Virus record (IMG/VR): IMGVR_UViG_3300025383_000015
Coordinates: 36,325-100,324 of that record
Source: a virus
Strand: one strand, 5' to 3'
Length of the DNA: 64,000 bases
Below are positions 10,474 through 64,000 of the stretch, one piece after another. A program made the translations under genes and the position numbers. The notes under the pieces are model-generated. The model worked only from the letters and a program-made list of their open reading frames with translations, ran no database searches and was not told where the DNA came from. Every line of letters begins with the position of its first letter. Within the stretch, counting starts at the first letter, position 1.

Positions 10474-10475
10474 GG

Positions 10476-10715: not shown

Positions 10716-10716
10716 A

Positions 10717-11175: not shown

Positions 11176-11211
11176 ATTGACTCCTTAGTTTGAGTCTATG
11201 ATACGGCGGTT

Positions 11212-11499: not shown

Positions 11500-11508
11500 T
11501 TTGTAGTC

Positions 11509-11546: not shown

Positions 11547-11554
11547 GTACATAC

Positions 11555-12142: not shown

Positions 12143-12698
12143 TTAGGTCATCCATTCGTTGTCGGACTAGTAACTCTAGATCCTGCATGGTTCCCTCGTT
12201 GCTTAAAACTTGGTCTACATCGTAACCCTCTAAATCATGCTCAGATATGTGACCATTAATTGCTTTTACTCCTGGACGTTCTACACGCCACAGTTGTCCA
12301 TTCATTTGTTTCAACATAGTTGCTTCGTTTTTAAACCGAACGTCGGTAATAACGTAATCCGTGTCTACGTCATGTAATTCCTGAAGAACAGAGATTACCC
12401 AAATATCTTCACCTAAAACTTTACGAGCACCTACTCCTAAGTCTTGAAGAATTCGACGAAGTTCTGGCTCTTTTACTTTAGCCCTGTCCCAACCTTTTTC
12501 GTCTACCCATTCCCTTAAATACACGGGATTAAATACGTCGTCGTAGTCATAACCTTCAACAATTGGATTTAATTCGTAGGCTAACTCACGAATTTTGTCA
12601 GCAAACGCTACACGAGTAAACCCGTACTCACTGACAAGGATACTTGCGACAGTATCCTTGCCAGATTGTGCGTAGCCAGTTAAACCTATGATAGCCAT
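12123..12698 (-). CDS. Deoxynucleoside monophosphate kinase-like P-loop kinase
   Basis: This 191-residue protein begins with a P-loop (IGLTGYAQSGKDTVA). An AFADKIRELAY segment follows, then a DVRFKNEA block near residue 120, as in phage dNMP kinases of the T4 gene 1 type and related adenylate-kinase-like enzymes. It would phosphorylate dNMPs to feed the dNTP pool, which fits the class II reductase at the left end. Its start overlaps the protease gene by 13 bases. Confidence 0.75.
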   Translation of the reverse strand: MAIIGLTGYAQSGKDTVASILVSEYGFTRVAFADKIRELAYELNPIVEGYDYDDVFNPVYLREWVDEKGWDRAKVKEPELRRILQDLGVGARKVLGEDIWVISVLQELHDVDTDYVITDVRFKNEATMLKQMNGQLWRVERPGVKAINGHISEHDLEGYDVDQVLSNEGTMQDLELLVRQRMDDLIANKTN

Positions 12699-31413: not shown

Positions 31414-32490
31414 TTATGCGCCCATAACTAAAAATAACCCTGAAAAAAGGTCACCAATATCCACAGATGCTGTTCCAACAGATCCTTGTACACCTTGTGT
31501 TCCAATTCCTGTAGCGCCTTGTAAGCCTTGAACTCCTTGTACTCCTTGAGTTCCTTGAATTGCAGACCCTTGTACTCCCTGAGTTCCTTGGGGGCCAGTT
31601 GTTCCATCTGTTCCCTGTGTACCTGTAGAACCAGCAGTTCCCTGTACACCCTGTGTACCTGTTCCGATTACACCTTGAGTACCTTGGACACCCTGTAATC
31701 CTTGTGTTCCTTGGTAACCTTGCAATCCTGTTGCGCCTAATGTTCCTTGGGTACCTTGTGCACCTACCGAACCCGTTGCACCAACAGCACCCTGTACGCC
31801 TTGCGTACCTGAGTAACCTTGTAATCCGTAAGGTCCTTGAGTTCCAATTGCTCCCTGCAAACCTTGTACACCTTGAACACCCTGTGTTCCAGATCCCATA
31901 GATCCCTGAGTTCCCAAAGAACCCTGTACACCTTGGGTTCCTTGAGTACCAGACCCAGTAGACCCCTGTATACCTTGGCTACCCGATGAGCCTTGCGCTC
32001 CTGAACTTCCTTGTGTTCCTTGAATGCCGTGACCAGCAATAATTCCTTGAACAGTGTTTTGTAACGAGTATAAAGTTGTTTGTAATGAGTATTCTTTTTG
32101 CGCCAAAGCAATCAAGGTTGCTGTTATGTCAACCTCTTGAGTTCCGTCATTTTTTGTTACTAAAACTATTTCGTGATTTATGTTGTTTAAACTGGTTGCA
32201 TTAGATAGTGCTTTTAAATATAATTTTTTATTACTTCCTTGGTTTTGTCCAAAGGTACCTAACCAAATAGGATACTCAGGATCTCCGCCAATGTAAGCAA
32301 CCCACACACCCTGACCAATAACAGGAACATCAGGTGAGGTACTTGCAGGATCAATAGGCCAAGCCCAGTCAGTTACCTCTGACCCTGTAGTTTGTGGGAT
32401 AGACAGACGTAATCTACGTTGATGTTGTGGATCGTTGTTGTCCTGAACAACACCTCTATAGATTCCGTAATGTCTTTTAATATCATCCAC
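31414..32490 (-). CDS. Baseplate spike (gp5/gpV-like OB domain) with collagen-like C-terminal stalk
   Basis: In this 358-residue protein, residues 1-95 match the OB-fold domain of phage spike proteins (GIYRGVVQDNNDPQHQRRLRLSIP, then VWVAYIGGDPEYPIWLGTFG). Residues ~100-150 form a coiled helix. From ~155 on it is a collagen-like Gly-X-Gln/Ser run ending ...GLFLVMGA. Spikes normally end in a beta-helix, so a collagen-like stalk is unusual. The start is GTG, overlapping the gpJ-like stop by one base. Confidence 0.65.
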   Translation of the reverse strand: MDDIKRHYGIYRGVVQDNNDPQHQRRLRLSIPQTTGSEVTDWAWPIDPASTSPDVPVIGQGVWVAYIGGDPEYPIWLGTFGQNQGSNKKLYLKALSNATSLNNINHEIVLVTKNDGTQEVDITATLIALAQKEYSLQTTLYSLQNTVQGIIAGHGIQGTQGSSGAQGSSGSQGIQGSTGSGTQGTQGVQGSLGTQGSMGSGTQGVQGVQGLQGAIGTQGPYGLQGYSGTQGVQGAVGATGSVGAQGTQGTLGATGLQGYQGTQGLQGVQGTQGVIGTGTQGVQGTAGSTGTQGTDGTTGPQGTQGVQGSAIQGTQGVQGVQGLQGATGIGTQGVQGSVGTASVDIGDLFSGLFLVMGA

Positions 32491-34244
32491 TACATCGTTC
32501 CAATATTGATATTACTTACTTGGAATCTAAAGATCTCATTTGGAGAACCAATAAGAGTTGAATAGGCTGTAAATGCTCCAGTACCTGTTGCAGTTCCACT
32601 GGACTGAGTACTGGCAACTGTGAAATGAGTTGAATCTGCAACTGTTGTTACTGGGACTGCTGTCACGTTATACCCACTAGGACTAAAGCCAGTAACTGTA
32701 ACCGTTGATCCAGCACTTAAACCATGTGGAGCGCTGGTTGTGTAGGTTATTGATGTCCCAGAAGCAGCAGCAGATGTAATAGGTACACCATAACGGTATA
32801 GCCCTGTTACTCGTGCAGTCTTTACTCCAGGTAACGAATTTACTACTGCCTCAATATCTTGAGGGTAGATGGTTTGTTGAAATGACAATCCGTTATAACC
32901 GTAAACTACAGATAGCGTTGAAAGGATTAAAGAAGTTACATCTGAGGCTTTGTACTTGGGATCAAGAGCATATGTTAAAGAAAGAACAACATCTACATAC
33001 GTTGGTGGTTGAACACTAAGAGAACTGCCAATTAGTAGTTTGTCTGCCATGTATGCAGATACGTTACTTGCCAATGTAGTGTATTCAGAAGAAGTAGTTC
33101 CATCAGGATTTAATCCTGGCTGTAGATCTGTAGTTCCAGCATTTCGTGTGGGTGCAATGTACAGAGTTACTGATGACCATACCGCAGCATTTGCGTTTGC
33201 TTTTCCTACGTTGTTTACGCTTAAAGCAAGGTCAGCATAATCTTTTTTGGTAACAGCACGGTTAGCAGCACGCAAAGATGCTGGTGCAGAGATGCGAATT
33301 TGGTCTGTGCTTTCTGGATCTGAACCAGCAATAGCAGCAGATGTGTTGGTTACTGTGATAGTTCCCTTAAGTGCAGTGACTTGTGTGTCTGTAAGTCCAG
33401 GAACATAACTAATATTTGTAGCAATATTTGTACCAATGTTTCCAATATCTCCCCCACCAACTGTATACGCGGCTCTGATTTGAGAGTAAGGAACAGGAAT
33501 AGCGCCCGCTACACCGTCACCAAAACTTACAATGATGTTGTTGTTTTGATCAAAAGAAGTTGTGTATACAAGATCTGATGACCCGTAGTCAGTAATATGT
33601 TGTACCTCAGTCCACTGAGAGTAAATGTCTCCATCCTGTACAAACACTGTAATACTTCCATCAACAACTGGTGAGTGTAAAAGCATGTACGATTGATTTG
33701 GAGAACCATCTGAAGTACCGATAAGTTCTCCATATGTAGGTACGGCAGATGGAGAAACTAGAGTTATTAATTGACCTTCTTTTGCAAGAACAGTATTTGA
33801 AGTTCCACTTACTACAGTTACATCTGCAGTAGTTGTAAAGTAAAGTGTTTGTACAACATCTCCTGTTGTAACTTGACCTGATACCACTGTTCCTTGACCC
33901 AATAGTTGGTCTGTGCTTCCAGAGTTAGTAAATGTAAGGTTAACCAAAGCCTGACGATAGCCCGCTGGGTTGTACCCAAAAGTTTGAGCAATGTTAAGAA
34001 CACTATTTCGTTGAGTCGCAGTGTAAATAGAGTTTTCGTTAGCGTTACGGTCAATGTAATAAGAAATAAGATCGCCCATATAAGCCATGGCTTCTACAAA
34101 AGCAACACCAAAATCAGCAGGATCAGCAGCAGTCCAATTTGGGATACGGGCTTGAATTCGTGCAATTAACTTCTCTCTAATAGAGTAGTAATCTCTCGAG
34201 GTGTAGTCAACGGATACTGGTATGGTAGAAATTTGTGTGGTCAC
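32490..34244 (-). CDS. Baseplate J-like (gpJ/gp47-type) wedge protein
   Basis: This 584-residue protein opens VDYTSRDYYSIREKLIARIQARIPNWTAADPADFGVAFVEAMAYMGD-type sequence (the first ~70 residues), classic for gpJ/gp47 baseplate wedge proteins. Later parts are beta-rich. Near 440-560 there are Ser/Thr/Gly-rich stretches (GLSAGSTVTVTGFSPSGY). It assembles the inner wedge with the gp25-like protein. The start is GTG with a GAGGAG site. Confidence 0.85.
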   Translation of the reverse strand: MTTQISTIPVSVDYTSRDYYSIREKLIARIQARIPNWTAADPADFGVAFVEAMAYMGDLISYYIDRNANENSIYTATQRNSVLNIAQTFGYNPAGYRQALVNLTFTNSGSTDQLLGQGTVVSGQVTTGDVVQTLYFTTTADVTVVSGTSNTVLAKEGQLITLVSPSAVPTYGELIGTSDGSPNQSYMLLHSPVVDGSITVFVQDGDIYSQWTEVQHITDYGSSDLVYTTSFDQNNNIIVSFGDGVAGAIPVPYSQIRAAYTVGGGDIGNIGTNIATNISYVPGLTDTQVTALKGTITVTNTSAAIAGSDPESTDQIRISAPASLRAANRAVTKKDYADLALSVNNVGKANANAAVWSSVTLYIAPTRNAGTTDLQPGLNPDGTTSSEYTTLASNVSAYMADKLLIGSSLSVQPPTYVDVVLSLTYALDPKYKASDVTSLILSTLSVVYGYNGLSFQQTIYPQDIEAVVNSLPGVKTARVTGLYRYGVPITSAAASGTSITYTTSAPHGLSAGSTVTVTGFSPSGYNVTAVPVTTVADSTHFTVASTQSSGTATGTGAFTAYSTLIGSPNEIFRFQVSNINIGTM

Positions 34245-47444: not shown

Positions 47445-48143
47445 TTAAATATACGTCTTCTTGTTCCAAAAGAATTTCTTATATCGATCAAATAAGACAC
47501 GGTTAAATTTACGCATATCAGCGTTGTATTTCTTTCGTTCTGCATCTCCCCCTAAAGAGGAAGACCAAGAATCACGCTTAAATGGAATAACCTGCAAAAA
47601 TGGTGTTCCAGCAGGAATCATTCCTTCAAAGTTAGGGTCACGTAATTTGAGAAACATATTAAATGGGATAGAAAAATCGTCAGTGTCTACAATTCCAGAC
47701 GCACAAACTATAGGAGAAGGCTCATGGTGTTGAGGCTCCATGACCATGATCGAATATCCTTTAGGTGTTTTGATAGACCAAGGTATGACGATTCTTACTG
47801 CGTAGTTAATATCTCGTGAGTACGGATGGTTTTGAAATTGCCCCATGCGTTGAAATGCAATTGCCTCATTATTGCCCCATTGAAAGTAAGGCCCATCAGA
47901 GGTTTGTCGCACGTAAATGTCATACGGAGTTTCCATGATGTATCCAGCCGTCATCATGTCCCACAGTGGCATGCAGCGTTTGATAGTGGCTGTAGGAGAT
48001 CCGTCTAGCATTGGTTCTTTTTTTCCACTAGCCGAGAGGTAAGACGCTGCTTCTTTATACCATTGAGGTATGTATTCAGTTGCTGGCTTAGGCTTCTCTA
48101 ATACGCCGTCTGGGTTGTGAGTGTCGGTAAAGATGATCTCCAT
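47445..48143 (-). CDS. DUF6065-like protein
   Basis: This 232-residue protein matches the DUF6065 pattern: KPATEYIPQWYKEAASYL near 17-35, TIKRCMPLWDMMTAGYIMET near 55, GYSIMVMEPQHHEPSP near 130, and a GIVDTDDFSIPFNMFLKL...GTPFLQVIPF tail. The family's role is unknown. An enzyme-like jelly-roll fold is suspected by others but not shown here. It is divergently transcribed from a similar gene at 48264. Confidence 0.6.
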   Translation of the reverse strand: MEIIFTDTHNPDGVLEKPKPATEYIPQWYKEAASYLSASGKKEPMLDGSPTATIKRCMPLWDMMTAGYIMETPYDIYVRQTSDGPYFQWGNNEAIAFQRMGQFQNHPYSRDINYAVRIVIPWSIKTPKGYSIMVMEPQHHEPSPIVCASGIVDTDDFSIPFNMFLKLRDPNFEGMIPAGTPFLQVIPFKRDSWSSSLGGDAERKKYNADMRKFNRVLFDRYKKFFWNKKTYI

Positions 48144-48263
48144 CTAATGCTCCTTAGTTAGGGCACCACTGTAGCATGGCTATGTACTCGAACGTGCACT
48201 TGCTTTTGAAAATAGCAGTGTGTAGAGTCTGACTATATCAGCCTGTTGAGAGGATCTCCTTTT
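48144..48263. promoter_or_regulatory. Divergent intergenic region
   Basis: About 120 bases separate the minus-strand DUF6065-like gene and the plus-strand relative. A TTGAAA and a TATAT stand in the plus orientation, but their spacing (21 bases) is long. Promoters in both directions are expected since the genes diverge. No clear operator repeats were seen. Confidence 0.35.
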
Positions 48264-49004
48264 ATGGCAAAATTGCCACCACTCGTAGTCTATTGGGCTC
48301 CCGTCATTTCTTCTTCTGAAGACGGGGAGTGGAATATGCTTTATCCAGAACCTACTCGATTATGGGAATCTATAATGAAGGATAAAAACCCAGCAAGAGG
48401 TTCTACTACTTACACCTCATGCCCTGCGGCAGTTCACCAATTTAAAAATACATTTGTATTTAAAAACGCTTTAGAGTCAATATATTCATACGACTTCACA
48501 CAGCCTGGTGCTGAATACATGCAGCCAACGTCGTCAACTTACCTATCATGTGAGTTGACTAGGCCTCCTGCCGTTCTTACTGGGCCAACCATTGACTTTA
48601 AATTAAAGTACGTGTTTTTTGCTGAAGAGCCAGTCACCGCAACTTTTACCCCACCTATTTTTAGCAAACCAAAGTATTTTCAATACGCTTCTGTAGTGCC
48701 TGGCAAAATGGATATAGGAAGTTGGTTTAGGCCTTACACATTGGAGATGCAACTATGGGATAGTAAGGGAACCCTTACTTTAGAAGATGACGAACCTTTG
48801 TTCTACATAGATGTCAATACAGATCGAGAAGTCACACTAAAGAGGTTTAAAATGACTTCAAACCTTATTGCCATCATAGACCACTGCACAAAGTCTACTG
48901 ATTGGATGGGTAGAGGAACACCTTTGGTAGACCGTTACAGAAAGTTTAGAGCCTCTAGAACTAATGACCTTGTGCTACAGGAGATAAAGAATAACCTTCT
49001 TTAG
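48264..49004 (+). CDS. DUF6065-related protein (divergent paralogue)
   Basis: This 246-residue protein starts at the ATG at 48264, behind AGGATCTCC; a TTG at 48246 is the alternative. It has the layout of the neighbour at 47445-48143: a CPAA...N-F-x-F block near 53-65, an F-x-P-x-I region, a IGSWFRPYTLEMQLW segment near 158 and a DDEPLFYIDVNTDREVTLKRF tail. The pair may be old paralogues. It is one of only five plus-strand genes in the window; function unknown. Confidence 0.55.
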   Translation: MAKLPPLVVYWAPVISSSEDGEWNMLYPEPTRLWESIMKDKNPARGSTTYTSCPAAVHQFKNTFVFKNALESIYSYDFTQPGAEYMQPTSSTYLSCELTRPPAVLTGPTIDFKLKYVFFAEEPVTATFTPPIFSKPKYFQYASVVPGKMDIGSWFRPYTLEMQLWDSKGTLTLEDDEPLFYIDVNTDREVTLKRFKMTSNLIAIIDHCTKSTDWMGRGTPLVDRYRKFRASRTNDLVLQEIKNNLL

Positions 49005-49201: not shown

Positions 49202-50104
49202 TTAGATTAGAACGTAAAGTACGCCCTGTGTACCAGCGCCACCTGCTGTGCTAACTTGGCCACCGCCGCCGCCAGCACCATAACCAGAAGCAGAACCACC
49301 GTTTCCAGTTCCACCTGTTCCAATGCCACTACCGCCTCCACTACCGTTACCACTTCCGCCTGAGCCTGTGGTTCCCACAGTTAAACATGGAAAAATTGAG
49401 TTTGAGTTAATAGTAGTTTTACCAACAGTACCGTTACCGCAGGCTCCAGTTACTCCATTTGGACTACCAGCACCACCGCCTCCGCCCCAACCGCACTGAT
49501 AACCTGCTCCACCGCCAGTACCTCCTGAAGCACTGAGGCCACCAAAAGTTGTGGTTCCACCAGATCCACCGCCGCCATTAGGGTACGTTCCACCGCTAGA
49601 GCCGTTGCCGATAACTAACGGCATTGACCCAGTTAGAGTCATTGCTCCGCCTGTTATTCCGCCAGATCCACCGCCACCTCCGCCGTAGAACGATCCGTGA
49701 CCGCCGCCGCCACCGCCGCCACCTCCAACAAGTACTACCCAGGCGTATCCAGTCTGCGTAATTGTTTGCGATGAAGTGTAAGTAGTTAAAGTGCCTGTTG
49801 TATTGGCAACACTTTGACCTGTCAGAGTGATATTAATCAACACAGAAGAGCCTGATGTTACGTAATACTTTTGGCTTGTTGTGGTTGTTCCAATGTTGAC
49901 TGTAGTTGTTCCACTTGAAAAAGAAATTGTAGACAATAGCGTAGATCCGCTAAAAAGAAGTAGAGAACCAGGCTGAGTGGTAACAATACTGTATGTTCCT
50001 GGAGTAAGTACTAATGCTGACTCGTATAAAGTGTTTGCTGAAGCAGCAGTTAGAGTTTGGGCAATTGTGTTTGCTCCACCTAAAGAAGAATAACTAAGAG
50101 CCAT
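49202..50104 (-). CDS. Glycine-rich tail adhesin (putative receptor-binding)
   Basis: This 300-residue protein begins MALSYSSLGG at 50104, with GGAGAG nine bases before it. The first ~120 residues are beta-rich Ser/Thr (TLTAASANTLYESALVLTP). The rest is a run of glycine blocks such as GGGGGGGGHGSFYGGGG separated by short variable loops. Such glycine-rich tips form polyglycine-type adhesins in T-even-like phages, with loops setting host range. Confidence 0.6.
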   Translation of the reverse strand: MALSYSSLGGANTIAQTLTAASANTLYESALVLTPGTYSIVTTQPGSLLLFSGSTLLSTISFSSGTTTVNIGTTTTSQKYYVTSGSSVLINITLTGQSVANTTGTLTTYTSSQTITQTGYAWVVLVGGGGGGGGGHGSFYGGGGGGSGGITGGAMTLTGSMPLVIGNGSSGGTYPNGGGGSGGTTTFGGLSASGGTGGGAGYQCGWGGGGGAGSPNGVTGACGNGTVGKTTINSNSIFPCLTVGTTGSGGSGNGSGGGSGIGTGGTGNGGSASGYGAGGGGGQVSTAGGAGTQGVLYVLI

Positions 50105-50556
50105 TATGACACTCTCCATCCGTAGGACGCACCTACATAAACTAGAACTGCTCCTGCATAGTTTTTATCTATTGACAAGTTCTGAGATACACCATTGATG
50201 TTTGTTCCACCGTTGTTAACGGTAATATTATTAGTTGCCGCTGATCCTGTGGCGTCAAAAATATGAATTTCATTTCCTAGTGTAGGAGATGAAGGAAGAG
50301 TCAATGTGCGGGCTGCTGTTGTATCCACCATGTAGGCGTTAAATGCGGCCAAAGTAATATTTGATGAAACTGCAGTAGCAGGAAATTGGCCCGATGCTCC
50401 TGTGGTTCCTTGAGTACCGTTAGATCCAGCAGTACCCTGAACACCCTGAGTACCTTGAATAGCGGTACCCTGGGTACCTTGTACACCCTGAACACCTTGC
50501 AGACCAGCGCCTGCATAGATGTCCCACCCAGTGCCGTTCCATCTCTTTACTGACAT
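50104..50556 (-). CDS. Short collagen-like fibre protein with conserved C-terminal module
   Basis: This 150-residue protein has a W-x-G-T-G-W lead, a collagen-like Gly-X-Gln run (~20-55), then a beta module (TLPSSPTLGNEIHIFDATGS...) that closely matches the C-terminal module of 53407-54207. The module probably anchors or caps the trimer. It overlaps the Gly-rich adhesin start by one base. Confidence 0.55.
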   Translation of the reverse strand: MSVKRWNGTGWDIYAGAGLQGVQGVQGTQGTAIQGTQGVQGTAGSNGTQGTTGASGQFPATAVSSNITLAAFNAYMVDTTAARTLTLPSSPTLGNEIHIFDATGSAATNNITVNNGGTNINGVSQNLSIDKNYAGAVLVYVGASYGWRVS

Positions 50557-50906: not shown

Positions 50907-51755
50907 TTATCCAATCACCACTACAACGTATCCAGAACCGCCAGTGCCGCCTTGAGCGCCACCACCACCACCACCGCCGCCAGTATTAGCGGTAGCAGGA
51001 GAAGGAATTGAGCCGCCTGTGGCATTTCCAGCAGCCCCACCGCCATTACCTCCAGAGTTTCCAGTTCCACCAGTAACTGCACCACCACCACCGCCACCGC
51101 CTGCATAAAATACTGCTGAACCGCCTACTATTGTGTTTGACAATCCAACCCCGCCAACACCAGCAGTTGTTCCAGAATAGTTTCCTCCAACTGCTCCAGC
51201 GCCGCCACCGCCGCCTGAACCAGTACCAGATGCTCCACCAGTTCCGCCAGCATTTCCCTGATTTGTTATTCCAGAACCTGCTCCAATTCCACTTGCAGAA
51301 CCTCCTCCACCTGAACCACCAGTAGCGCCATCATCTCTACCAGCAGTCGCGGCGTTACCCTGAGCGCCACCTCCGCCACCAAGTGCAATAACATTTGCAA
51401 GAATTGAGGAACTGCCGTTTCTTTGATAAGGATAGCCAGAGTTACTACCGCCACCTCCAACAGTTACGGTTTGAGTTCCTGCGGCAAGATAAAAAGATGT
51501 GTTGTAAATATATCCACCAGCGCCGCCACCTCCTCCACCATAAGTTGAGTTTGTGCCATATCCGCCACCGCCACCGCCACCTACCATCAAGATTTCGCAA
51601 GTTCCACCAACACCAATGGTGATAGATCCAGAACCAGTAAACTTGTAAATAGTCTTACCAGCACGAGAAGTTGTATCAATGGTAGGAGAACCAGTGGTAG
51701 CGGTAACTGTTGCTTTACCGATTCCACCAGCAGATACGGGCGCAAAAAATGGCAT
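50907..51755 (-). CDS. Glycine-rich tail adhesin (putative)
   Basis: In this 282-residue protein, a Ser/Thr beta lead (~1-60) is followed by long Gly blocks (YGTNSTYGGGGGGAGG and similar) to the end. The composition resembles 49202-50104 and 52627-53406. It probably forms part of an adhesin tip. Confidence 0.6.
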   Translation of the reverse strand: MPFFAPVSAGGIGKATVTATTGSPTIDTTSRAGKTIYKFTGSGSITIGVGGTCEILMVGGGGGGGYGTNSTYGGGGGGAGGYIYNTSFYLAAGTQTVTVGGGGSNSGYPYQRNGSSSILANVIALGGGGGAQGNAATAGRDDGATGGSGGGGSASGIGAGSGITNQGNAGGTGGASGTGSGGGGGAGAVGGNYSGTTAGVGGVGLSNTIVGGSAVFYAGGGGGGGAVTGGTGNSGGNGGGAAGNATGGSIPSPATANTGGGGGGGGAQGGTGGSGYVVVVIG

Positions 51756-53406: not shown

Positions 53407-54207
53407 TTAAGCGACCTTCCATCCATAAGTGGTGCCAGTAAAAACAAGAGTGGCAGAGCCATAGTTTACGTTAACTACAAAGTTTTGGTTAGAGCCTTGG
53501 ATGTAGTTATATCCAGTAGTTCCTGCTGGAGCAACTGTAATGTTGTTTGTAGCAGCGCTTCCCTTAGCATCAAATACGCGAATCTCATCACCTTGGTTAG
53601 GGGACGAAGGCAGTGTTAAGGTAAATGCTGCAGAAGTAGTATCACAGAAATACTGGTACCGAGTTGCTGCAGTAGTTGCCCCTGAGATTGCTGAAGATGT
53701 CCATGGGGAAGTTGAGATTGTTGCCCATGTAGCGGTTGTGCCGTTTGATTGAAGCAACTGTCCATTTGTTCCAATGCCCAAACGACTTACTGTACTAGCG
53801 CCTGTGCCGACGATTAAATCACCAGCAGTTGTTACTGTTGACAGTGGCAATGAGCCATTAACTAAGAAAGAAGTAAACCAAACAACCTCTACGATATCTC
53901 CTGCAGATAGCGCAGTGAGTCCTGTGATGGCTGTTCCTGAGGTAGCAACATAGTCTGTTCCACGAAGGAGTTTAGTTCCGTTGAGGAATACGCTTTCAGT
54001 TCCTACTGTGTAGGTGACTGATACAGATGTTTCTCCACCTGTTGCTGTGTATGAGAAGAAGGTCTGGTTAGGGGCAGATCCTGCGGTGTTGTCAATCCAA
54101 AGGTCACCAGTGGTTGGGTAAGACGGTGTGGTGTTACCTACGAATACGCGGGTACCAACGGCACCGTCAGTGACGATGTGTGTACCGACTGGGTTATTTT
54201 GGGCCAT
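53407..54207 (-). CDS. Tail fibre protein
   Basis: This 266-residue protein starts MAQNNPVGTH at 54207; an in-frame upstream extension lies within the gene before. Residues ~10-40 form a NTTPSYPTTGDLWIDNTAG fibre lead. The C-terminal ~100 residues (LTLPSSPNQGDEIRVFDAKGS, ...FVVNVNYGSATLVFTG) closely match the module of 50104-50556. It starts the first of the three adhesin units. Confidence 0.6.
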   Translation of the reverse strand: MAQNNPVGTHIVTDGAVGTRVFVGNTTPSYPTTGDLWIDNTAGSAPNQTFFSYTATGGETSVSVTYTVGTESVFLNGTKLLRGTDYVATSGTAITGLTALSAGDIVEVVWFTSFLVNGSLPLSTVTTAGDLIVGTGASTVSRLGIGTNGQLLQSNGTTATWATISTSPWTSSAISGATTAATRYQYFCDTTSAAFTLTLPSSPNQGDEIRVFDAKGSAATNNITVAPAGTTGYNYIQGSNQNFVVNVNYGSATLVFTGTTYGWKVA

Positions 54208-54208
54208 C

Positions 54209-54547
54209 TTACTGGATCTGACTTCCGAATGCTGTTGCAGTAATGGCGTTGTTTGTGCCGCCTTGGACATACAAAGTATCGGCTGCTGTGCTGTACGCCA
54301 TTGTGATACCTAGAGTAAAGGTTTGGGTTGTGTACGCTGGGACTGTCATGTTGTAGACAAGGGCTGTAGCAGCAGTATTTGTTGTTCCTGCTTTGTTACA
54401 AAACACGCTGACTGTTGCCGCTGCGTTGGTTGTGTTGCAGAGCACGATGCTCGATACAACTGCAGAATATCCTGATGGTACGGCGTAGAGAAGAGTGGCA
54501 GATGTGCCTGCCTGCGCCTGTCCAAGTTGAAGGTAGGAAGTTGCCAA
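54209..54547 (-). CDS. Hypothetical structural protein
   Basis: This 112-residue protein is Ala/Thr/Val-rich and hydrophobic-alternating (SAVVSSIVLCNTTNAAATVSV), beta-strand prone. It begins with TTG behind a strong AAAGGAGT six bases upstream. It starts the minus-strand run that leads into the adhesin units. Function unknown. Confidence 0.5.
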   Translation of the reverse strand: MATSYLQLGQAQAGTSATLLYAVPSGYSAVVSSIVLCNTTNAAATVSVFCNKAGTTNTAATALVYNMTVPAYTTQTFTLGITMAYSTAADTLYVQGGTNNAITATAFGSQIQ

Positions 54548-54637: not shown

Positions 54638-55642
54638 ATGAACTTGGTACAAAAGTCTATTTCTCAGGGCGGAAAACTGGCCCCAATTATCATCCCCAAT
54701 TTTTTGAGCAATGGTTTGGGCCTTATGAACCCATCTGTCTATATCGACGATGATGGAGACATCTTGGTCAACCTTCGCCAGGTGAACTATACTCTCTATA
54801 TCTCTGAAAATGATAAAAGATTCTTTAGTCCTTGGGGTCCTTTAACCTACCTTCATCCAGAAAAAGACCAACGTCTAGTCACTAATAACTTCCTCTGCCG
54901 TCTTGATAAAGACTATAACGTCATCAACTACACCAAGGTAGAGATGCTCAATCTTCATACTCCTATCTGGGAGTTTGTTGGCCTTGAAGATGCTCGCGTT
55001 GTTCAGTGGGATGGCGATTACTACATGATCGGTGTTCGTCGTGATACCACAACCAACGGCCAAGGTCGCATGGAATACAGTAAGGTAGAAATTGACAAAG
55101 AGAATTGGACTGTCAAAGAAGTTCAACGAGTTCGAGTACCTGCCCCACTACATGATGACACTTCGTACTGTGAAAAAAACTGGATGCCTATCCTAGATAA
55201 CCCTTATCACTTTGTTAAGTGGGCTATGCCTACCGAGGTAGTTTGGGCAAATCCTAATTCTCCTGAGTGTAAGCAGACCGTAATTAACGACAATGTTCCA
55301 CGGCCTCCAATTGATCAACGAGGAGGATCTCACGTTGTTTCTTGGGGCGATTACTACATCTGCATTACCCACGAGGTCAAACTCTGGAGAAATTACCTAA
55401 ACCAAAAAGACTCAACTTACCGCCATAGGTTGATTGTTTGGGACAAAGAGTTTAACTTTGTTGGTTTAAGCAAAGAGTTTGCTTTTATGAGCACTCCTAT
55501 TGAGTTCTGTGTTGGAGCCGCCATCATAAACGACAATCTATTGGTAAGTTTTGGCGTTCAAGATAACTCAGCATTTGTGTTAGAAGTTCCACACGCAATT
55601 GTAGATGAAATGATTGAAGAGGCAAAAACATATGTCAATTAA
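54638..55642 (+). CDS. Five-bladed beta-propeller glycosidase-like (GH130/GH43-type) protein
   Basis: This 334-residue protein has the repeating blades of GH43/GH130-like propellers: MNPSVYIDDDGDILVN near 30, FVGLEDARVVQWDGDYYMIGVRRD near 115, YCEKNWMPI near 180, and GGSHVVSWGDYYICITHEV near 232. The acidic residues in the LEDARVV segment are where such enzymes hold the substrate. It may trim or phosphorolyse glycans, or act as a sugar-binding partner. It heads a plus-strand cassette with a glycosyltransferase. Confidence 0.55.
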   Translation: MNLVQKSISQGGKLAPIIIPNFLSNGLGLMNPSVYIDDDGDILVNLRQVNYTLYISENDKRFFSPWGPLTYLHPEKDQRLVTNNFLCRLDKDYNVINYTKVEMLNLHTPIWEFVGLEDARVVQWDGDYYMIGVRRDTTTNGQGRMEYSKVEIDKENWTVKEVQRVRVPAPLHDDTSYCEKNWMPILDNPYHFVKWAMPTEVVWANPNSPECKQTVINDNVPRPPIDQRGGSHVVSWGDYYICITHEVKLWRNYLNQKDSTYRHRLIVWDKEFNFVGLSKEFAFMSTPIEFCVGAAIINDNLLVSFGVQDNSAFVLEVPHAIVDEMIEEAKTYVN

Positions 55643-56192
55643 CAAGTTAGCAACAGACGTTGCATTTGACTCTTTTAATCCTGAGAAGAACTTTGCTCTT
55701 GCTAACGCATACTATGATGCAGGTCAGTATGCCTCTGCTGCTGGGTTCTATCTACGTGCTGCAGATAGAGGGTACAAGACTCATCCTATAATTGCGTATT
55801 CTTCTCTTCTACGAATGTCTTTGTGCTTCAGTAAGCAGGAAGACAGAAATGCCACCGTCTATCAAAACACCTTGCAGGCTTTGACATTGATACCTGGTAG
55901 ACCAGAGGCATATTTCCTCTTAGCACGCATTCATGAGCGAAATAAAGAATGGCAAAAAGCCTACACGTTTGCAGAACTTGGGCTTGCACACACAATTGCT
56001 ACCTTCAATCAGCCTCTACCTGTGTATGTAGAGTACAACGGACCATATGTGCTAATGTTTGAAAAGGCTGTTGCAGGTTGGTGGTTGGGGCGCAAAGAAG
56101 AAAGCAAAGAACTATTCAACCACCTTTTAGATAACGTAGAAATGTCACAAGAGTACGTAAGCGGATGTATCAATAACTTAAGGTTGTTCTAA
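55632..56192 (+). CDS. TPR-type protein
   Basis: This 186-residue protein starts MSINKLA at 55632, overlapping the propeller gene by 11 bases, with GAGG nine bases before. It is all-helical, with a repeating A-x-x-Y-x-x-G-x-Y pattern (NAYYDAGQYASAAGFYLRAAD near 28; ARIHERNKEWQKAYTFAELGL near 103). It probably scaffolds the cassette's enzymes. No catalytic motif. Confidence 0.6.
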   Translation: MSINKLATDVAFDSFNPEKNFALANAYYDAGQYASAAGFYLRAADRGYKTHPIIAYSSLLRMSLCFSKQEDRNATVYQNTLQALTLIPGRPEAYFLLARIHERNKEWQKAYTFAELGLAHTIATFNQPLPVYVEYNGPYVLMFEKAVAGWWLGRKEESKELFNHLLDNVEMSQEYVSGCINNLRLF

Positions 56193-56728
56193 TGTTTCCT
56201 AATTGGTTTCAATATACCTCACCATTTTTTGATCGTAAATGTCCTGACGTTCCTTTAAGAGCGTTGCAGATTGGCACTTACACAGGAGACGCCACTGAAT
56301 GGTTGCTTATCAACCGTAATATCATTACTATTGATGATGTGGATACTTGGGCTGGAAGTGAAGAAGACCAGCATGATTCTTTAGACTTTTCGTCAGTTGA
56401 GCAATACTACGATTCTCGATTTAAAAACCAATCCAAAGTCATTAAAAACAAAATGACTAGTGATGAGTTTTTTAATCAAAACACAAAAACATTTAATTTT
56501 ATTTATATTGATGGTAGCCATACCGCTTTACAAACCGCACTTGATGGTCTAAATGCATTTAAAGTCTTAGAGCCAGGTGGGGTTATGGCGTTTGATGACT
56601 ACGAATGGCGTGAGGGTGGAAAGCCTTTTCTAGAGCCAAAAAGAGGAATTGATGCGTTTCTTTCTATCTGTGAGGGAGAGATTCAGATCCTAGAAACTGG
56701 ATATCAAATCTGGGTAACCAAATGCTAG
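56192..56728 (+). CDS. Class I SAM-dependent methyltransferase (Methyltransf_24-like)
   Basis: In this 178-residue protein, LQIGTYTGDATEWLL near residue 25 matches motif I of class I methyltransferases. Acidic strands at IDDVDTW and FNFIYIDGSHTALQTALDG near 110, then GGVMAFDDYEW, follow. Such enzymes methylate sugars or other small groups. It lies between the TPR and glycosyltransferase genes, sharing one base with the first and seven with the second. Confidence 0.7.
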   Translation: MFPNWFQYTSPFFDRKCPDVPLRALQIGTYTGDATEWLLINRNIITIDDVDTWAGSEEDQHDSLDFSSVEQYYDSRFKNQSKVIKNKMTSDEFFNQNTKTFNFIYIDGSHTALQTALDGLNAFKVLEPGGVMAFDDYEWREGGKPFLEPKRGIDAFLSICEGEIQILETGYQIWVTKC

Positions 56729-57456
56729 AAAATGCATGCTTTGAGGTATTCCACACAGATACGGGTAACCCACTTCGCAACAAATCTTATGAGTCAATCC
56801 TTAAGCAAATGTCATTTTTGCCTAGGCTTGGTTCTCTGACTATGTACCTAAATACTGCTGATAAGGTAGAAAACTTTGTCAACCTTCATCCAGAATTTAA
56901 AGTTAATACAGTAGAAGACTACTGCCAGCCAGGAGAAACCTTTCCTCCTAGTGCAGGAGTTGTAGGCGTTTGGGCAAGTAACTACATGGCTTACAAAAAG
57001 TTCTTACAGTCCGATTACGACACACTTATCTTTTTTGAGGATGACATTACTATCAGTAAAAACTTTCAACTAGTTATTGAGATGTACATGCGTCAACTTC
57101 CCGTTGATTGGGATTTCTTTTCTTTCTTTGTTCCTGATGATTCCCTGTTTGCGTACAACGAAGACCAGCACACTATTGGGGCGGAAAACGTTTGTATTTC
57201 GTATCAGCAGTGGTCATGTGCTGGCTACATGGTAAGCCGAGAAGGTGCACGAAAGGCTGTAGAGGACGTAGAGTCACGAGGAATTAACTGCCCAGTAGAT
57301 TGGTACATCTTTAACTTTCGAATGAAAAAAGAAGATAACCAAAAGACGTTCTATACCTACACACTTAAGCCAGGAAACTATCGCCCAGTAAACTTTCTAA
57401 AAGGCGCAGCAGAATACACACAGATTCATAACGGAACTACAGAACTACTAAACTAG
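56722..57456 (+). CDS. Glycosyltransferase family 25-like protein
   Basis: In this 244-residue protein, FPPSAGVVGVWASNYMAYKKF near 75-95 and YDTLIFFEDDITISKNFQ near 100-115, with the E-D-D motif, match family 25. This family includes LPS galactosyltransferases and procollagen galactosyltransferase. Later CAGYMVSREGARKAV near 168 and NCPVDWYIF near 195 fit the family's second half. It ends one base before the stop of the largest collagen-like gene on the other strand. The substrate is unknown. Confidence 0.7.
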   Translation: MLENACFEVFHTDTGNPLRNKSYESILKQMSFLPRLGSLTMYLNTADKVENFVNLHPEFKVNTVEDYCQPGETFPPSAGVVGVWASNYMAYKKFLQSDYDTLIFFEDDITISKNFQLVIEMYMRQLPVDWDFFSFFVPDDSLFAYNEDQHTIGAENVCISYQQWSCAGYMVSREGARKAVEDVESRGINCPVDWYIFNFRMKKEDNQKTFYTYTLKPGNYRPVNFLKGAAEYTQIHNGTTELLN

Positions 57457-60372
57457 TTACATTCCACCAAAAAGCAACGCTGTAACTGTTGGATCTGCTG
57501 AGACTTGTCCCATAACACCCTGCACACCCTGTGTTCCTTGGGTGCCCTGAACGCCCTGCGTACCCTGCGTACCCTGTACACCTTGCGTACCTTGAAGTCC
57601 TTGCGTGCCTTGAATAGATAGGCTCTGTACGCCTTGAGTACCCTGAACCCCCTGTGTACCCTGCGTACCTTGAAGTCCTTGAGTTCCTTGGATAGACAGG
57701 CTTTGTACACCCTGTGTTCCTTGAGCACCAGTCGTACCCTGTACACCTTGAGAACCTAACGTTCCTTGTGCACCTGTATTACCTTGAATACCAATTGCAC
57801 CATCAAGGTTAACGGTCCATGATGTAAAGGTTCCAGAACCTAGGCTGCGGGTGACGTTGACTGTCAATGAGCCTGTGCCAGAGTTATACGCAGTAACATC
57901 TCCGTAGATGATGTTAGAGATAGTGTTGGCAATAATTACTGACTGACCTACTGAGTAAGAAAGGTTAGTTGCAACTGTAAGACTTTGAGAACCAGACGCT
58001 GGAAGAGTAATCGAAGTTATAGAAGATGTTTGGTACTTATCTCCTGCTGTTCCTTGTGAACCAAATGTTCCTTGAAGACCTTGAGTACCCTGTGTTCCTT
58101 GGGCGCCTTGCGCACCAGTAGTGCCTTGAACGCCCTGCACACCCTGCGTGCCTTGTAAACCTTGTGTTCCTTGGATAGAAGGACTTTGCACACCCTGAAT
58201 ACCTTGAACGCCCTGGACACCCTGTGTGCCCTGTACGCCTTGTAGACCCTGTGTACCTTGAATAGATGGACTCTGTACACCTTGAATACCCTGAACACCC
58301 TGTACGCCTTGTACGCCCTGAGTTCCTTGAGATCCCTGCACACCTTGAGAACCAGTAGTTCCCTGAGAACCTTGAACTCCCTGCGTACCTTGCGCTCCAG
58401 TTGCACCAGTAAATCCTTGTGCACCAAGTGTTCCTTGGGCACCCTGCGCACCTAGCGTGCCTTGGACACCCTGTGTGCCTTGCAAACCTTGAACACCTTG
58501 GGCACCAGTTGCTCCTTGGCTACCAAGAGTTCCCTGAACACCCTGTACGCCTTGTACACCTTGTGTTCCTTGAACGCCCTGAGTGCCTTGGACGCCTTGG
58601 ACTCCTTGGACTCCTTGAACGCCCTGTGTACCTTGGATACCTTGGTAGTTAACTTGAGTGACGCGAACAAACGCTCCAGCAGACGCAGGAACTGGAGATG
58701 CTGCTGCTGCATAATTTAAATATACGCTCGTGGAATCTGCGTTCCAGTAAACTTCGTAGTAATCGCCAGCAGTTGCATTAACTTGCCACACCCAGTTAGT
58801 CAATGTTGGGTTGGTGTTAGTTACCTCAGAGTCAAAGGCTGTAGATGCTGCAGTGGCACCGTTCTTAACTAACCAAAAGTTTGCTGTGTGATTTCCTGGG
58901 CCAGTTAACGCAAGTTGACCAGCAAAGTCAATCATGTATGTGCCAGTTACAGGCATTGTTACACGAGTAAGGTGCGTTCCATTCGTAACAAGAGTTACAC
59001 CGTTATTGATATTGGTAGTGTCAAAAATAACTGCTGCTCCGCCAGTTGTGGCGCTTTGATCTGCAGTTGAGTAAAAAGAACCATAGTTAGAGATAACGCC
59101 ACCAGCACCAGTGGCACCAGTTGCTCCTTGTGCACCTACACCAGATGTTTGGGCAAAAACAATGCTATCTGTACCAATACGGATTGAACCATCTGAGTTT
59201 GATCCATTACCAATTTCAATCCATACAGTTTGTCCATATGTATTTCCATCAGTTACAAAGATGTAGTCGCCCTCTTCAACCTGACCAACAACATGGTTGT
59301 CATAGTCAGTGGCGCGGGTAATCTTCCAAGGTCTACCACCAGGGTTGTTCTTACCAGTATCAGTTACTGTGTAAACACCATTTTGCTTTTGGTCAGCCTG
59401 ACCTGCAATGAGGAGACGGTCACCAACAGCCAGATTTGGTGTTGTGTACCCGTCTACAGAAAGTACGGCGTTAGTTCCAGCCTGAATGTAAGCGCCTACA
59501 CCAGTTCCATTTTCGGCATCAGCAGATCCAGCATAGTATGTACAAGAGTTATCAAGGGGCGTTGTTTGAATTGCCTCTACAGATTGGTGAGCATTCTGTG
59601 AAGATACAGGTCCTACAGCACCTTGAATACCTTGTGTTCCCTGAACACCTTGCGTGCCCTGAACACCTTGTGTTCCCTGTACACCTTGAAGACCTTGTAC
59701 GCCTTGAAGACCCTGTACACCTTGTGCTCCTGTTGAACCAACCGTTCCTTGCACACCTTGTGTGCCTTGGGTTCCTTGTGCTCCTTGAGCACCGAGCGTT
59801 CCTTGTGAACCAGCGGTTCCTTGCGTACCCTGTAAACCTTGTACGCCTTGAACTCCTTGGACACCCTGAGTTCCTTGCGCTCCCTGAGCACCAAGTGTTC
59901 CCTGGACACCCTGAGTTCCTTGGGTACCTTGAACGCCTTGTGCACCATTATAGCCTTGAGTACCAAATACGCCTTGAGTACCCTGAACTCCCTGTGTACC
60001 TTGAATAGCAGTTCCTTGTGTACCCTGGGTACCTTGAACTGTAGGAACATCTACATCAATTGTCTTGTTTGTAGAGTGGTAAGTAAACGAAATGTTGGTT
60101 TGTGTTCCGCTTGTTATGGCGTTATACACATGTTCAGGAGTTGAATATAGATTTTGAACACCTTCTGGAAGATCGTCAGTAGACCCTAAAGCCGCCCCTG
60201 AAATAGCGGTAGAGACTTCCTCAGCAGATACACCAGAATCATTCCAGTTAGTTCCATCAAAAATACGAATCTTTTTAAAGACCGTGTTGTAGTAAGTGTC
60301 TCCAGCAGAATGGCCCGTAGGGTCGCTTGTTAGGTGCAAAAGACCTAGCGGTACGACGTAACTACGGGCCAT
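57457..60372 (-). CDS. Very large collagen-like tail fibre protein
   Basis: This 971-residue protein starts [20 protein letters not shown], then a W-x-D-S-G-V-S lead into a short coiled region. Blocks of Gly-X-Gln triplets (about residues 115-245, 575-780 and 870-955) alternate with beta domains: one of ~280 residues (~270-560) and one of ~85 residues (57789-58045 in DNA). The shape is a long triple-helical fibre with globular inserts. It probably is the main host-contacting fibre. A hairpin at 60384-60421 overlaps its ribosome site. Confidence 0.75.
57789..58045 (-). repeat. Inter-collagen beta module (copy in the 971-aa fibre)
   Basis: This ~85-residue module lies between collagen blocks: D-K-Y-Q-T-S-S start, [14 protein letters not shown] middle, [11 protein letters not shown] end. 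It matches the three modules of the next fibre gene at D/R-x-K/Y-x-x-[10 protein letters not shown] and NLDGATG. Copies are diverged at DNA level. Confidence 0.6.
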
Positions 60373-60423: not shown

Positions 60424-63156
60424 TTATGCCTTTACTACTACTCGGTAAGACTTAGATGTAACTGGTGCAACTGCAAATCCTACAGTTACTGATGATGTAG
60501 TTACATACGCTACGTCTGTAACAACTTCCATCTTGGTCGCTGTATCCCAGACTGTAACCATGATGTCTTCAGTTCCAAGGTTGTGGTTGATTGTGAACTG
60601 TGTAGTTCCAGTCATTCCACCATCGGTTGAATCACCTGTAATTGTTTCTGCGTAAGTTCCAAGTTGACCAGATGTACCTTGGATACCTTGGATACCGTCA
60701 AGACCTTGTACACCTTGTGTTCCCTGGGTACCTTGGGCACCAGTGGTTCCCTGTACACCAGTCGCACCGTCAAGGTTTACTGACCAGGACCCACCAGTAC
60801 CTCCGCCAATGTAATCCTTAATATCAACGTTAAGTTCATTTGTTCCGCTGTTATAAGAAACTACTCTAGCGTGGATAAGATTTGCAGTATCAGCAGCAAT
60901 AACTACATCTTGACCAACTGAGTAAGAAAGATTTGCATCATCAAGTACGAATGTGTGGTTTGAGTCAGAACCCAAAGTGTAAGAAGTTGTAGAGGTTGTG
61001 CGGTAACGGTCAGAGTGTCCATCAGTTCCTTGGGCGCCATCTACACCTTGTGTACCTTGAACTCCTTGAGTTCCATCGGTACCTTGGGTGCCTTGCGTTC
61101 CATCAGTTCCCTGTGTGCCTTGTGTGCCATCGGTACCTTGGGTTCCCTGTGTTCCTTGTGTGCCCTGCGTACCATCGGTACCCTGTGTACCGTGAGTACC
61201 TTGTGTACCCTGAGTTCCTTGTGTACCCTGGGTACCATCAGTTCCCTGTGTACCATCTGTGCCTTGGGTTCCTTGTTGACCATCTACACCTTGGGTACCT
61301 TGGGTACCTTGTGAACCTACAGTACCTTGTGCACCTTGTGTGCCATCAGTTCCTTGAGTTCCTTGGGTTCCTTGTGTGCCCTGTGCACCTTGGGTACCAT
61401 CTACACCTTGAGTGCCTTGTACGCCTTGTGTACCTTGGGTACCTTGAGCACCAGTTGTTCCTTGAACACCAGTTGCACCATCAAGGTTGATTGTCCAAGT
61501 TGAGTAATCTCCAGTACCTGTGTAATCCTTAACGATTACTGCGAGGTTTTCCCCATCAAAACTTGCGACTGTTGCGTGGATAAGGTTGCTGGAATCGTAG
61601 GCAATAACAACATCTTGTCCAACAGAGTAGGCTAGATCTCCATCGTTAACAGCAAAGACTGGTGTTGTTGAAGAACCTAGTACAAAGTCTGTGCTAGAAG
61701 TTGTCTTATAGCGATCAGAGTGTCCATCAGTACCCTGTGCACCAGTTGTACCTTGCTGACCGTCAACACCCTGAGTACCTTGTGTACCTTGTTGACCTTC
61801 TGTACCTTGAGCACCTTGTGTACCGTCAGTTCCTTGCGTACCCTGTGTACCCTGTGTACCCTGTGTGCCTTGGGTTCCATCGGTTCCTTGGGTACCTTGG
61901 GTACCTTGAGCACCGTCAACACCTTGGGTTCCCTGTTGTCCATCGGTTCCTTGTGTACCGTCTACACCTTGTGCAGCAAGAAGTGCCCAGAAGCCAGAGC
62001 CATAAGGTTGTTCTGCTTGGTTATCTGCTGTAGCGATGTATGAAGAGCCGTTGTATTGAACTACATCATTGACATTGTATAGAGGCGCTGAATCCCATGT
62101 ACCTTGCCATGTAAATGAGGTACCTGTTGTACCTTGGGTTCCATCAGTACCTTGGGTTCCCTGAGTACCTTGTTGTCCATCGGTACCCTGTGTTCCTTGT
62201 TGGCCGTCTGTACCTTGCGTTCCTTGAGTACCATCAGTACCTTGTGTGCCCTGGGTACCTTGAGAGCCAGTTGTACCTTGTACACCTGTTGCTCCATCAA
62301 GGTTAATTGTCCATGAAGAGTAGTTTCCAGAACCAACAATGGTATGAATATTTATTTGGATGTAATCAGATGGCACTGTCTCGTAGTAAGCAACAGTTCC
62401 AGTCATGTAATTATTAATGTCGTAAGCAACAACGACATCTTGACCTACTGAGTAAGAAAGATTTTCGTCATTTACATAGAAGACTACGCCATCTGCTACT
62501 GCAATATCATTTGCGGTATTAGAGGTTGTCTTATAGCGGTCAGAGTGACCGTCTGTACCTTGAGCACCATCGGTACCTTGTGTACCCTGTGCGCCATCAG
62601 TACCCTGAGTTCCTTGGGTACCATCTGTGCCTTGAGTTCCTTGTGTGCCATCGGTTCCCTGAGTTCCTTGCTGACCGTCTGTGCCTTGAGTACCTTGGGT
62701 GCCATCAGTTCCTTGGGTACCCTGAGTACCATCAGTTCCCTGTGTTCCCTGGGTACCGTCTGTTCCCTGTGTACCTTGGGTACCATCGGTGCCCTGTGTA
62801 CCCTGTGTGCCGTCAGTACCTTGTGTGCCCTGAGTTCCCTGTGTTCCCTGAGTGCCTTGAGTTCCGTGGGTTCCCTGAGTTCCCTGTGTACCTTGAGCAC
62901 CATCAGCACCTACATAACCTGCGGTTCCTTGTGTACCTTGAACACCATCAGTACCTTGTGTGCCTTGTGTACCTTGAGGACCAAATGCAATCCACGCAGT
63001 TCCATTCCATTGCTTAATGTACTTGTCGGTTGTGTCATAGTAAATCTGACCTTCGACAGGGTTTGTTGGTTGGCTGGCAGTTGAAAGGTTTTGAATGCGA
63101 GCATTCTGAAGTTCAAGTTTTCCAAGGTCTATTGGAGTCAAAAATTTTCTTGCCAT
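60424..63156 (-). CDS. Very large collagen-like tail fibre protein
   Basis: This 910-residue protein begins [20 protein letters not shown], with a [23 protein letters not shown] lead as in fibre attachment domains. Long Gly-Thr-Gln/Gly-X-Gln/Asp collagen blocks are broken by three ~85-residue beta modules (DNA 62286-62547, 61472-61724, 60762-61018). The C-terminal ~100 residues are beta-rich and end [16 protein letters not shown] precedes the start. It probably trimerises and caps a fibre. Confidence 0.75.
60762..61018 (-). repeat. Inter-collagen beta module, copy 3 of the 910-aa fibre
   Basis: The module starts [10 protein letters not shown], has [15 protein letters not shown] in the middle and ends [11 protein letters not shown]. 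It is the C-terminal-most copy, and the most diverged of the three in the centre. Confidence 0.6.
61472..61724 (-). repeat. Inter-collagen beta module, copy 2 of the 910-aa fibre
   Basis: The module starts [10 protein letters not shown], has [15 protein letters not shown] in the middle and ends [12 protein letters not shown]. It is flanked on both sides by Gly-X-Gln/Asp collagen blocks. Confidence 0.6.
62286..62547 (-). repeat. Inter-collagen beta module, copy 1 of the 910-aa fibre
   Basis: The module starts [10 protein letters not shown], has [15 protein letters not shown] in the middle and ends [12 protein letters not shown]. It is the N-terminal-most copy. Its centre has an insertion relative to the other copies. 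Confidence 0.6.
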
Positions 63157-63168
63157 TCGGTTATCTCC

Positions 63169-64000
63169 TTAAGATAAGTAGGCTTCGCCTGAAAACGCTG
63201 TTGCAAATGTGACTGTTAAGGAGTCCGAATTAGTGTATGTGATCTCGCCTTCGACTATATTACCAGCCGAATCTTGCACTGTAATGTTAGGGTAAAAATG
63301 CAAATTGTGGGTGATAACCCACGTACTATTTGCTACCCCTTGGGTGTGAACATATGCCACTCTTTGTGGAGTAAAGTATAGGTTTGTTACACCTTCAGAT
63401 AAGTCATCTGTAGTTCCTAGTGATGTTCCAGAGATACCTTGAGTACCAGGTTCTCCTTGGGCACCTTGTACACCCTGTGTTCCACTGCCTGTAGATCCCT
63501 GTACACCTTGGATACCTTGAGTACCACCAGCGCCTTGAGCACCAGTTGTTCCTTGTGTTCCTGATCCAGTGTGTCCTTGAAGACCTTGTGCGCCTTGTGT
63601 TCCAACAGAACCTTGAACACCTTGAGTACCTTGAGTACCAGCACCAGTTAAACCTTGTACACCCTGTACACCTTGTGTACCAGTGGCTCCCTGTGCACCA
63701 GTAGTTCCCTGAGTTCCTGACCCAGTAAGGCCTTGAGAACCCTGTACACCTTGAGGACCAACAATTGGACCTACATTTTCCCAAGAAGTAGAATTCCAAA
63801 CATAAAGATTAAGTCCAACAACATAAGCATCTCCTGGATTACCTGTTGGATGTGCTGCAATTAAGTCTGCTTCAGAAGCATAAGATCCAAGAATTGTTAC
63901 TGAAGTACCAGCAGGTCCTTGAACACCAAGTGTTCCTTGCGAACCTTGTAATCCTTGAGATCCTGATCCCTGAGTTCCTTGGGTACCTTGTGTACCGCGA
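63169..64000 (-). CDS. Large collagen-like tail fibre protein (partial, C-terminal part)
   Basis: The window edge cuts this gene; the visible ~277 codons are its C-terminal part. They begin with G-T-Q-G collagen triplets, then an insertion (SYASEADLIAAHPTGNPGDA, YVWNSTSWENVGP) that resembles sugar-binding fibre inserts. More collagen follows, then a beta C-terminal domain (DDLSEGVTNLYFTPQRV, ...FSGEAYLS). A shorter frame from GTG at 63360 is just its tail. It is a third large collagen-like fibre in series. Confidence 0.75.
   Translation of the reverse strand, partial: RGTQGTQGTQGSGSQGLQGSQGTLGVQGPAGTSVTILGSYASEADLIAAHPTGNPGDAYVVGLNLYVWNSTSWENVGPIVGPQGVQGSQGLTGSGTQGTTGAQGATGTQGVQGVQGLTGAGTQGTQGVQGSVGTQGAQGLQGHTGSGTQGTTGAQGAGGTQGIQGVQGSTGSGTQGVQGAQGEPGTQGISGTSLGTTDDLSEGVTNLYFTPQRVAYVHTQGVANSTWVITHNLHFYPNITVQDSAGNIVEGEITYTNSDSLTVTFATAFSGEAYLS

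What the first reader, a model, noticed from the sequence alone, without database searches (positions are those of the whole stretch)
54638..57456. Glycan cassette with a GT25 enzyme beside collagen-like fibres
Seen: four plus-strand genes (propeller glycosidase-like, TPR, methyltransferase, GT25-like) overlap or nearly touch and sit inside a minus-strand fibre region, with collagen-like genes on the far side. Known: family 25 includes procollagen galactosyltransferase, and bacterial collagen-like proteins such as BclA are glycosylated on Thr. Inference: the cassette may modify the Gly-Thr-Gln repeats of the phage's own fibres, with methylation of the sugars. The Gly-X-Gln repeats have Thr but almost no Lys, so Thr would be the site. 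This would be a phage-encoded fibre glycosylation system.
Basis: partly seen in the sequence, partly recalled or inferred. Interest (0 to 1): 0.8.

Follow-up and report, generated by a model that had tools for sequence, protein, structure and literature searches.

The report
Phage cassette likely glycosylating collagen-like fibres
A freshwater phage carries a compact four-gene set, found in hundreds of other aquatic phages and very often sitting directly beside genes for collagen-like tail fibres, that most likely builds a methylated sugar onto threonines of those fibres; the chemistry itself has not been shown.

Summary
At 54638-57456 (+), four translationally coupled genes encode a five-bladed propeller (GH130/GT108 fold), a TPR protein, a Methyltransf_24 enzyme and a GT25 enzyme. 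The GT25 stop codon abuts the stop of a 971-aa collagen-like fibre gene with 0 bp between. GT25 is not the heart of the system: it was gained once on the propeller tree, and the conserved core is propeller+TPR (at least about 590 propeller relatives in IMG/VR; no PHROGs match, only sub-threshold GH130 in Pfam). Around that core, decorators change (FkbM, GT2, GT11, GT17, GT25, ATP-grasp, sulfotransferase, radical SAM, DUF6445). The core recurs next to collagen-like genes in four orientations: 12 of 27 divergent representatives against 4.8 expected by local shuffling. All 16 long records with the propeller encode collagen repeats, against 3 of 15 control myophages. It also tracks Thr-rich G-X-Q repeats (22/98 loci against 2/129). 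Best reading: a phage-encoded, cytoplasmic fibre O-glycosylation cassette, working like C. difficile SgtA beside BclA3. No donor, linkage or modified peptide is shown, and some loci have other fibres instead of collagen nearby. Virion glycosylation by phages is known; this modular, collagen-linked version appears undescribed.

The parts
54638..55642 (+). Propeller enzyme, 334 aa; GH130/GT108-like fold; conserved core of the cassette; candidate initiating sugar transferase
   Evidence: Pfam PF04041 sub-threshold; AlphaFold pLDDT 85.8; Foldseek top hits GH130 phosphorylases and GT108 MPT-2; GLED motif with invariant D118 aligned to PDB GH130 'GVEDPR/GLEDPR'
55632..56192 (+). TPR protein, 186 aa from ATG 55632 (TTG at 55614 also possible); core partner, fused to methyltransferases in relatives
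56192..56728 (+). Class I methyltransferase (Methyltransf_24), 178 aa; decorator
   Evidence: PF13578 9.5e-12
56722..57456 (+). GT25 glycosyltransferase, 244 aa, invariant FEDD at 105-108; decorator
   Evidence: PF01755 2e-8; Foldseek to beta-1,4-GalT and COLGALT1; profile hits
57457..60372 (-). Collagen-like tail fibre, 971 aa, G-(T/V/A)-Q repeats, stop codon abuts GT25; prime candidate substrate
   Evidence: PF01391 2.8e-58; composition
60424..63156 (-). Collagen-like tail fibre, 910 aa, Thr at X in 116/162 triplets; candidate substrate
   Evidence: PF01391 4.9e-71; composition
63169..64000 (-). Further collagen-like ORF, runs off the window end
50104..50556 (-). Short fibre protein with 13 G-X-Y triplets
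53407..54547 (-). Two non-collagen fibre/tail-type genes on the near side; their start faces the cassette start across 90 bp

Best explanation
The cassette is a phage-encoded, soluble fibre-glycosylation module. During infection of an (inferred) actinobacterial host, the propeller enzyme, held near its protein substrate by the TPR partner, transfers a first sugar (probably mannose, from GDP-mannose or mannose-1-phosphate) to Thr hydroxyls in the G-T-Q repeats of the phage's own collagen-like tail fibres. GT25 extends that sugar, probably with galactose or a related hexose, and the methyltransferase caps it. Shown: gene set, order, overlaps, conservation, folds, and statistical linkage to collagen-like, Thr-rich fibres. 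Inferred: that the enzymes are active, the donors, the order of steps, the substrate, and the TPR role.
For: Overlapping genes and no transmembrane segment in any of the four proteins, so a cytoplasmic substrate is likely. Propeller fold and GLED motif match GH130/GT108 mannosyl enzymes; GT108 is a mannosyltransferase/phosphorylase family with a five-bladed propeller (PMC8476585). GT25 over cut-off with invariant FEDD. Minimal cassettes beside collagen (L073, L078) hold only propeller, TPR and an FkbM-type methyltransferase, leaving the propeller as the only candidate transferase there. Decorators in relatives are glycan enzymes: GT2, GT11, GT17, GT25, sulfotransferase, FkbM, mannose-6-phosphate isomerase/cytidylyltransferase. 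Collagen adjacency beats random placement within the same loci: 12 vs 4.8 expected at <70% identity, P=3e-4, with arrangements changing at least 18 times on a quick tree. Collagen repeats in 16/16 long propeller records vs 3/15 control myophages without it, P=3e-6. Propeller found with 22/98 Thr-rich vs 2/129 Thr-poor G-X-Q loci, P=2e-7. Precedent: C. difficile SgtA, encoded immediately upstream of bclA3, adds GlcNAc to Thr of its collagen repeats (PMC7157674).
Against: No direct evidence of a glycan. About half of the scorable non-redundant loci have no adjacent collagen gene, and some contigs of 30-64 kb have none at all, though other fibre genes are often there. Fibre regions collect cargo genes, so adjacency may partly be location. 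The Thr association is confounded with lineage and habitat. Thr here is at X, not at the Y position glycosylated in the G-P-T repeats of BclA3. The propeller match to GH130 is below Pfam's cut-off, and its donor is unknown.
Confidence: 0.58

Rival explanations
1. The cassette glycosylates virion fibres in general (any Ser/Thr-rich, low-complexity fibre), and collagen repeats are only the commonest target.
For: Propeller+TPR sits beside non-collagen fibres in L211, L202, L187 and others; collagen absent from the short contigs G011, G016, G017, G019.
Against: Collagen adjacency exceeds the local null and collagen is present in every long record examined.
Confidence: 0.22
2. The enzymes remodel host surface glycans or EPS, changing the receptor or excluding other phages.
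For: This is the usual proposal for phage glycosyltransferases in fibre regions, e.g. pelagimyophages (PMC7029224); GT25 also makes LPS sugars (Pfam description).
Against: No membrane segment in any of the four proteins; the record carries two WhiB genes and so probably infects actinobacteria, which lack LPS (host inferred); does not explain the tie to Thr-rich collagen repeats.
Confidence: 0.1
3. The cassette modifies phage DNA (glycosylated, hypermodified bases).
For: Proposed for glycosyltransferases of freshwater phages (PMC10202952, PMC10611076).
Against: No thymidylate-synthase-fold hydroxymethylase (PF00303) in the own record (record may be incomplete); genes lie with fibres, not with replication; GT25 and GH130/GT108 are not known DNA-modifying families (own knowledge).
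Confidence: 0.04
4. The cassette is fibre-region cargo with an unrelated metabolic role, adjacent to collagen by lineage history only.
For: Fibre regions are hypervariable and collect auxiliary genes (PMC7029224).
Against: Adjacency recurs through repeated rearrangements and in both cyanophage-like and actinophage-like lineages.
Confidence: 0.06

Closest known systems
C. difficile SgtA with BclA3 (PMC7157674)
   Same: Glycosyltransferase gene directly next to a collagen-like surface protein gene; Thr in collagen repeats is the site.
   Different: SgtA is a GT-A enzyme using UDP-GlcNAc, encoded upstream of bclA3; here the core is a propeller plus TPR, the organism is a phage, and the repeat is G-T-Q, not G-P-T.
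Mycobacteriophage virion glycosylation (Freeman et al. 2023, known here through PMC12619734; original not held)
   Same: Phage virion proteins carry glycans.
   Different: Capsid and tail tube C-termini, not collagen-like fibres; the enzymes of that system were not compared here.
GH130 mannoside phosphorylases and GT108 mannosyltransferase/phosphorylases (Leishmania MPT)
   Same: Five-bladed propeller fold, GLED motif.
   Different: Known members act on oligosaccharides; sequence match is below the Pfam cut-off.
GT25: beta-1,4-galactosyltransferases and COLGALT1
   Same: Pfam over cut-off, EDD motif, similar fold.
   Different: Shorter, N-terminal part not matched; acceptor unknown; COLGALT1 acts on hydroxylysine, and Lys is nearly absent here.
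Synechococcus phage DSL-LC02 locus (OR032571)
   Same: Propeller and TPR-FkbM genes on + between minus-strand collagen-like and tail fibre genes.
   Different: No GT25 or Methyltransf_24; radical SAM domain fused to the TPR-FkbM protein and a DUF6445 gene instead.

Membership tests
GH130 (Pfam PF04041) | Score over curated cut-off | tested here: not met
   18.2 bits vs 26; 11 of 22 relatives hit weakly, best 4.8e-5
GH130 / GT108 | Five-bladed propeller fold | tested here: met
   Foldseek E 1e-8 to 5b0p and 5e-8 to 6q4z, TM about 0.5
GH130 / GT108 | Conserved Asp of the ED-P/A-R motif | tested here: met
   E117 D118 invariant in 22 divergent members; aligned to GVEDPR/GLEDPR of 7fip and 9fj8
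GH130 | Phosphate-binding residues and phosphorolysis | not tested
   would separate phosphorylase from GT108-like transferase
GT108 | GDP-mannose-dependent transfer | not testable with these tools
   needs enzyme assay
GT25 (PF01755) | Score over curated cut-off | tested here: met
   34.8 bits vs 24
GT25 | EDD motif and GT-A type fold | tested here: met
   FEDD invariant; Foldseek to 8xgx, 9evk; model only pLDDT 65
Procollagen galactosyltransferase (COLGALT) | Lys (hydroxylysine) acceptor in collagen repeats | tested here: not met
   almost no Lys in the fibres
Phage virion glycosylation systems | Glycan on virion protein | not testable with these tools
   needs mass spectrometry

The most novel reading that the evidence does not exclude
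The propeller is a new kind of protein O-glycosyltransferase, from the GH130/GT108 superfamily, that initiates sugars on Thr of collagen-like repeats, guided by a TPR partner; together they are the universal core of a modular virion-glycan system spread across aquatic phages.
Probability: 0.3. Interest if true: 0.85.

Novelty: new variant of a known kind. Interest (0 to 1): 0.62.

Why it matters
If true, aquatic phages in large numbers decorate their collagen-like fibres with variable, methylated sugars. That would give a concrete substrate for many 'auxiliary' phage glycosyltransferases now assigned to DNA or host surface glycans, suggest how proline-free G-T-Q collagens might be stabilised or shielded, and offer a small soluble system for glycosylating collagen-like polymers.

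Tried and rejected
GT25 as the collagen-specific element: rejected, one gain on the tree and cassettes without it also abut collagen. Propeller as plain glycosidase: less likely, since minimal cassettes have no other transferase. DNA modification: no PF00303 in own record. Cellular origin of the core: only 6 hits in genome contigs, on contigs that look like misbinned phage (not checked further). Profile search of PDB with A1 gave only chance hits; A3 gave weak GH130 hits. No RNA element; promoter and terminator scans no better than shuffles. An earlier count said 17/17 long records; the correct count is 16/16 (12 IMG/VR, 3 named phages, own record).

Full report
What is there. Four plus-strand genes at 54638-57456 overlap by 11, 1 and 7 bp and look like one coupled unit. 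They encode a propeller enzyme, a TPR protein, a Methyltransf_24 enzyme and a GT25 enzyme. The unit lies in a minus-strand fibre region of a contractile-tailed phage (sheath, baseplate wedge and tape-measure-type proteins). The GT25 stop abuts the stop of a 971-aa collagen-like fibre gene with no base between, and two more collagen-like genes follow. The record is a 100,324-base IMG/VR virus contig. Two WhiB genes and a sheath closest to Streptomyces phage BRock point to an actinobacterial host (inference).

The propeller. Pfam GH130 is matched below cut-off and no PHROGs family matches any of 22 divergent members. The AlphaFold model (pLDDT 85.8) matches GH130 mannoside phosphorylases and the GT108 mannosyltransferase MPT-2. 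The GLED motif is invariant and aligns with GVEDPR/GLEDPR of solved GH130 enzymes.

Modularity. In the window's clade the order propeller-TPR-methyltransferase-GT25 holds in 56 of 57 distinct loci, sometimes with an ATP-grasp gene added. Elsewhere TPR is fused to FkbM or Methyltransf_24 domains, and GT2, GT11, GT17, another GT25, radical SAM, sulfotransferase, DUF6445 and a mannose-6-phosphate isomerase/cytidylyltransferase protein appear. Most of these are sugar-building functions. L073 and L078 carry only propeller, TPR and an FkbM-type methyltransferase beside a collagen-like gene (the FkbM call there rests on similarity to the cassette's own profiles). If a glycan is made there without host help, the propeller must be the transferase. 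DSL-LC02 also encodes GDP-mannose 4,6-dehydratase and a GDP-L-fucose gene (PMC10611076), which fits GDP-sugar chemistry but does not prove it.

Link to collagen. Within the fetched loci the cassette touches a collagen-like gene more often than random placement inside the same loci gives: 12 of 27 usable representatives against 4.8 expected at <70% identity (P=3e-4), 24 of 60 against 11.2 at <85%. Collagen lies downstream convergent, downstream same strand, upstream same strand or upstream divergent; a quick tree needs at least 18 changes of arrangement, while GT25 needs one. All 16 long records (76 kb or more) with the propeller encode collagen repeats against 3 of 15 sheath-bearing named myophages in which the propeller profile found nothing (Fisher 3e-6). 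The long records were the longest among my fetched loci, and the controls are mostly marine cyanophages, so sampling and habitat are confounders. In an independent test, loci were fetched by collagen DNA patterns: propeller genes occur in 22 of 98 loci with Thr at X in a quarter or more of triplets and 2 of 129 below that. Lineage is a confounder here too.

Limits. Many loci have no collagen within 300 bp, and four contigs of 30-64 kb have none; the neighbours there are often other fibre genes. So 'fibre glycosylation, collagen preferred' is safer than 'collagen only'. No sugar, donor, linkage or site is shown. Thr sits at X, whereas the G-P-T repeats glycosylated in BclA3 carry it at Y (PMC7157674).

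Verdict. A phage-encoded fibre-glycosylation cassette is the best reading (0.58 for collagen-like fibres as the main target, 0.22 for virion fibres in general). Virion glycosylation in phages is known (Freeman et al. 2023, through PMC12619734), and an adjacent transferase modifying collagen-repeat Thr is known in C. difficile. New here are the propeller-TPR core, its modular decorators, its scale in aquatic phages and its statistical tie to Thr-rich collagen-like fibres. The literature search was limited to openly licensed papers and ten searches, so earlier descriptions elsewhere cannot be excluded.

Noticed in passing
31414-32490 (-): Collagen-repeat matches (own-record 67819-68346) inside a 358-aa ORF in the baseplate/tail region, away from the fibre cluster.
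   Followed up: no
47445-48143 (-) and 48246-49004 (+): A DUF6065/phrog_7084 protein and a lone plus-strand phrog_17480 gene, both of unknown function, start back to back at the edge of the fibre region.
   Followed up: no
own record 51259-51501 (-) and 32609-32776 (+): Two WhiB-family genes, pointing to an actinobacterial host.
   Followed up: partly
L021:4052-4663: An ORF that reads like an HNH endonuclease (own impression, not tested) sits between the propeller and TPR genes, a possible homing element; L117 has a similar gap.
   Followed up: no
L063:2031-4341 and 10001-12251: Two propeller-TPR cassettes on opposite strands in one contig, with collagen-like genes nearby.
   Followed up: no
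L202:13640-14239, L216:14600-15241, L001:15109-15702: DUF6445 proteins recur in propeller cassettes and read like 2OG-Fe(II) oxygenases (own impression, not tested); they could hydroxylate the fibre or the sugar.
   Followed up: partly
L152-L157: GTDB contigs labelled as bacteria or archaea that carry propeller cassettes and look like misbinned phage.
   Followed up: no
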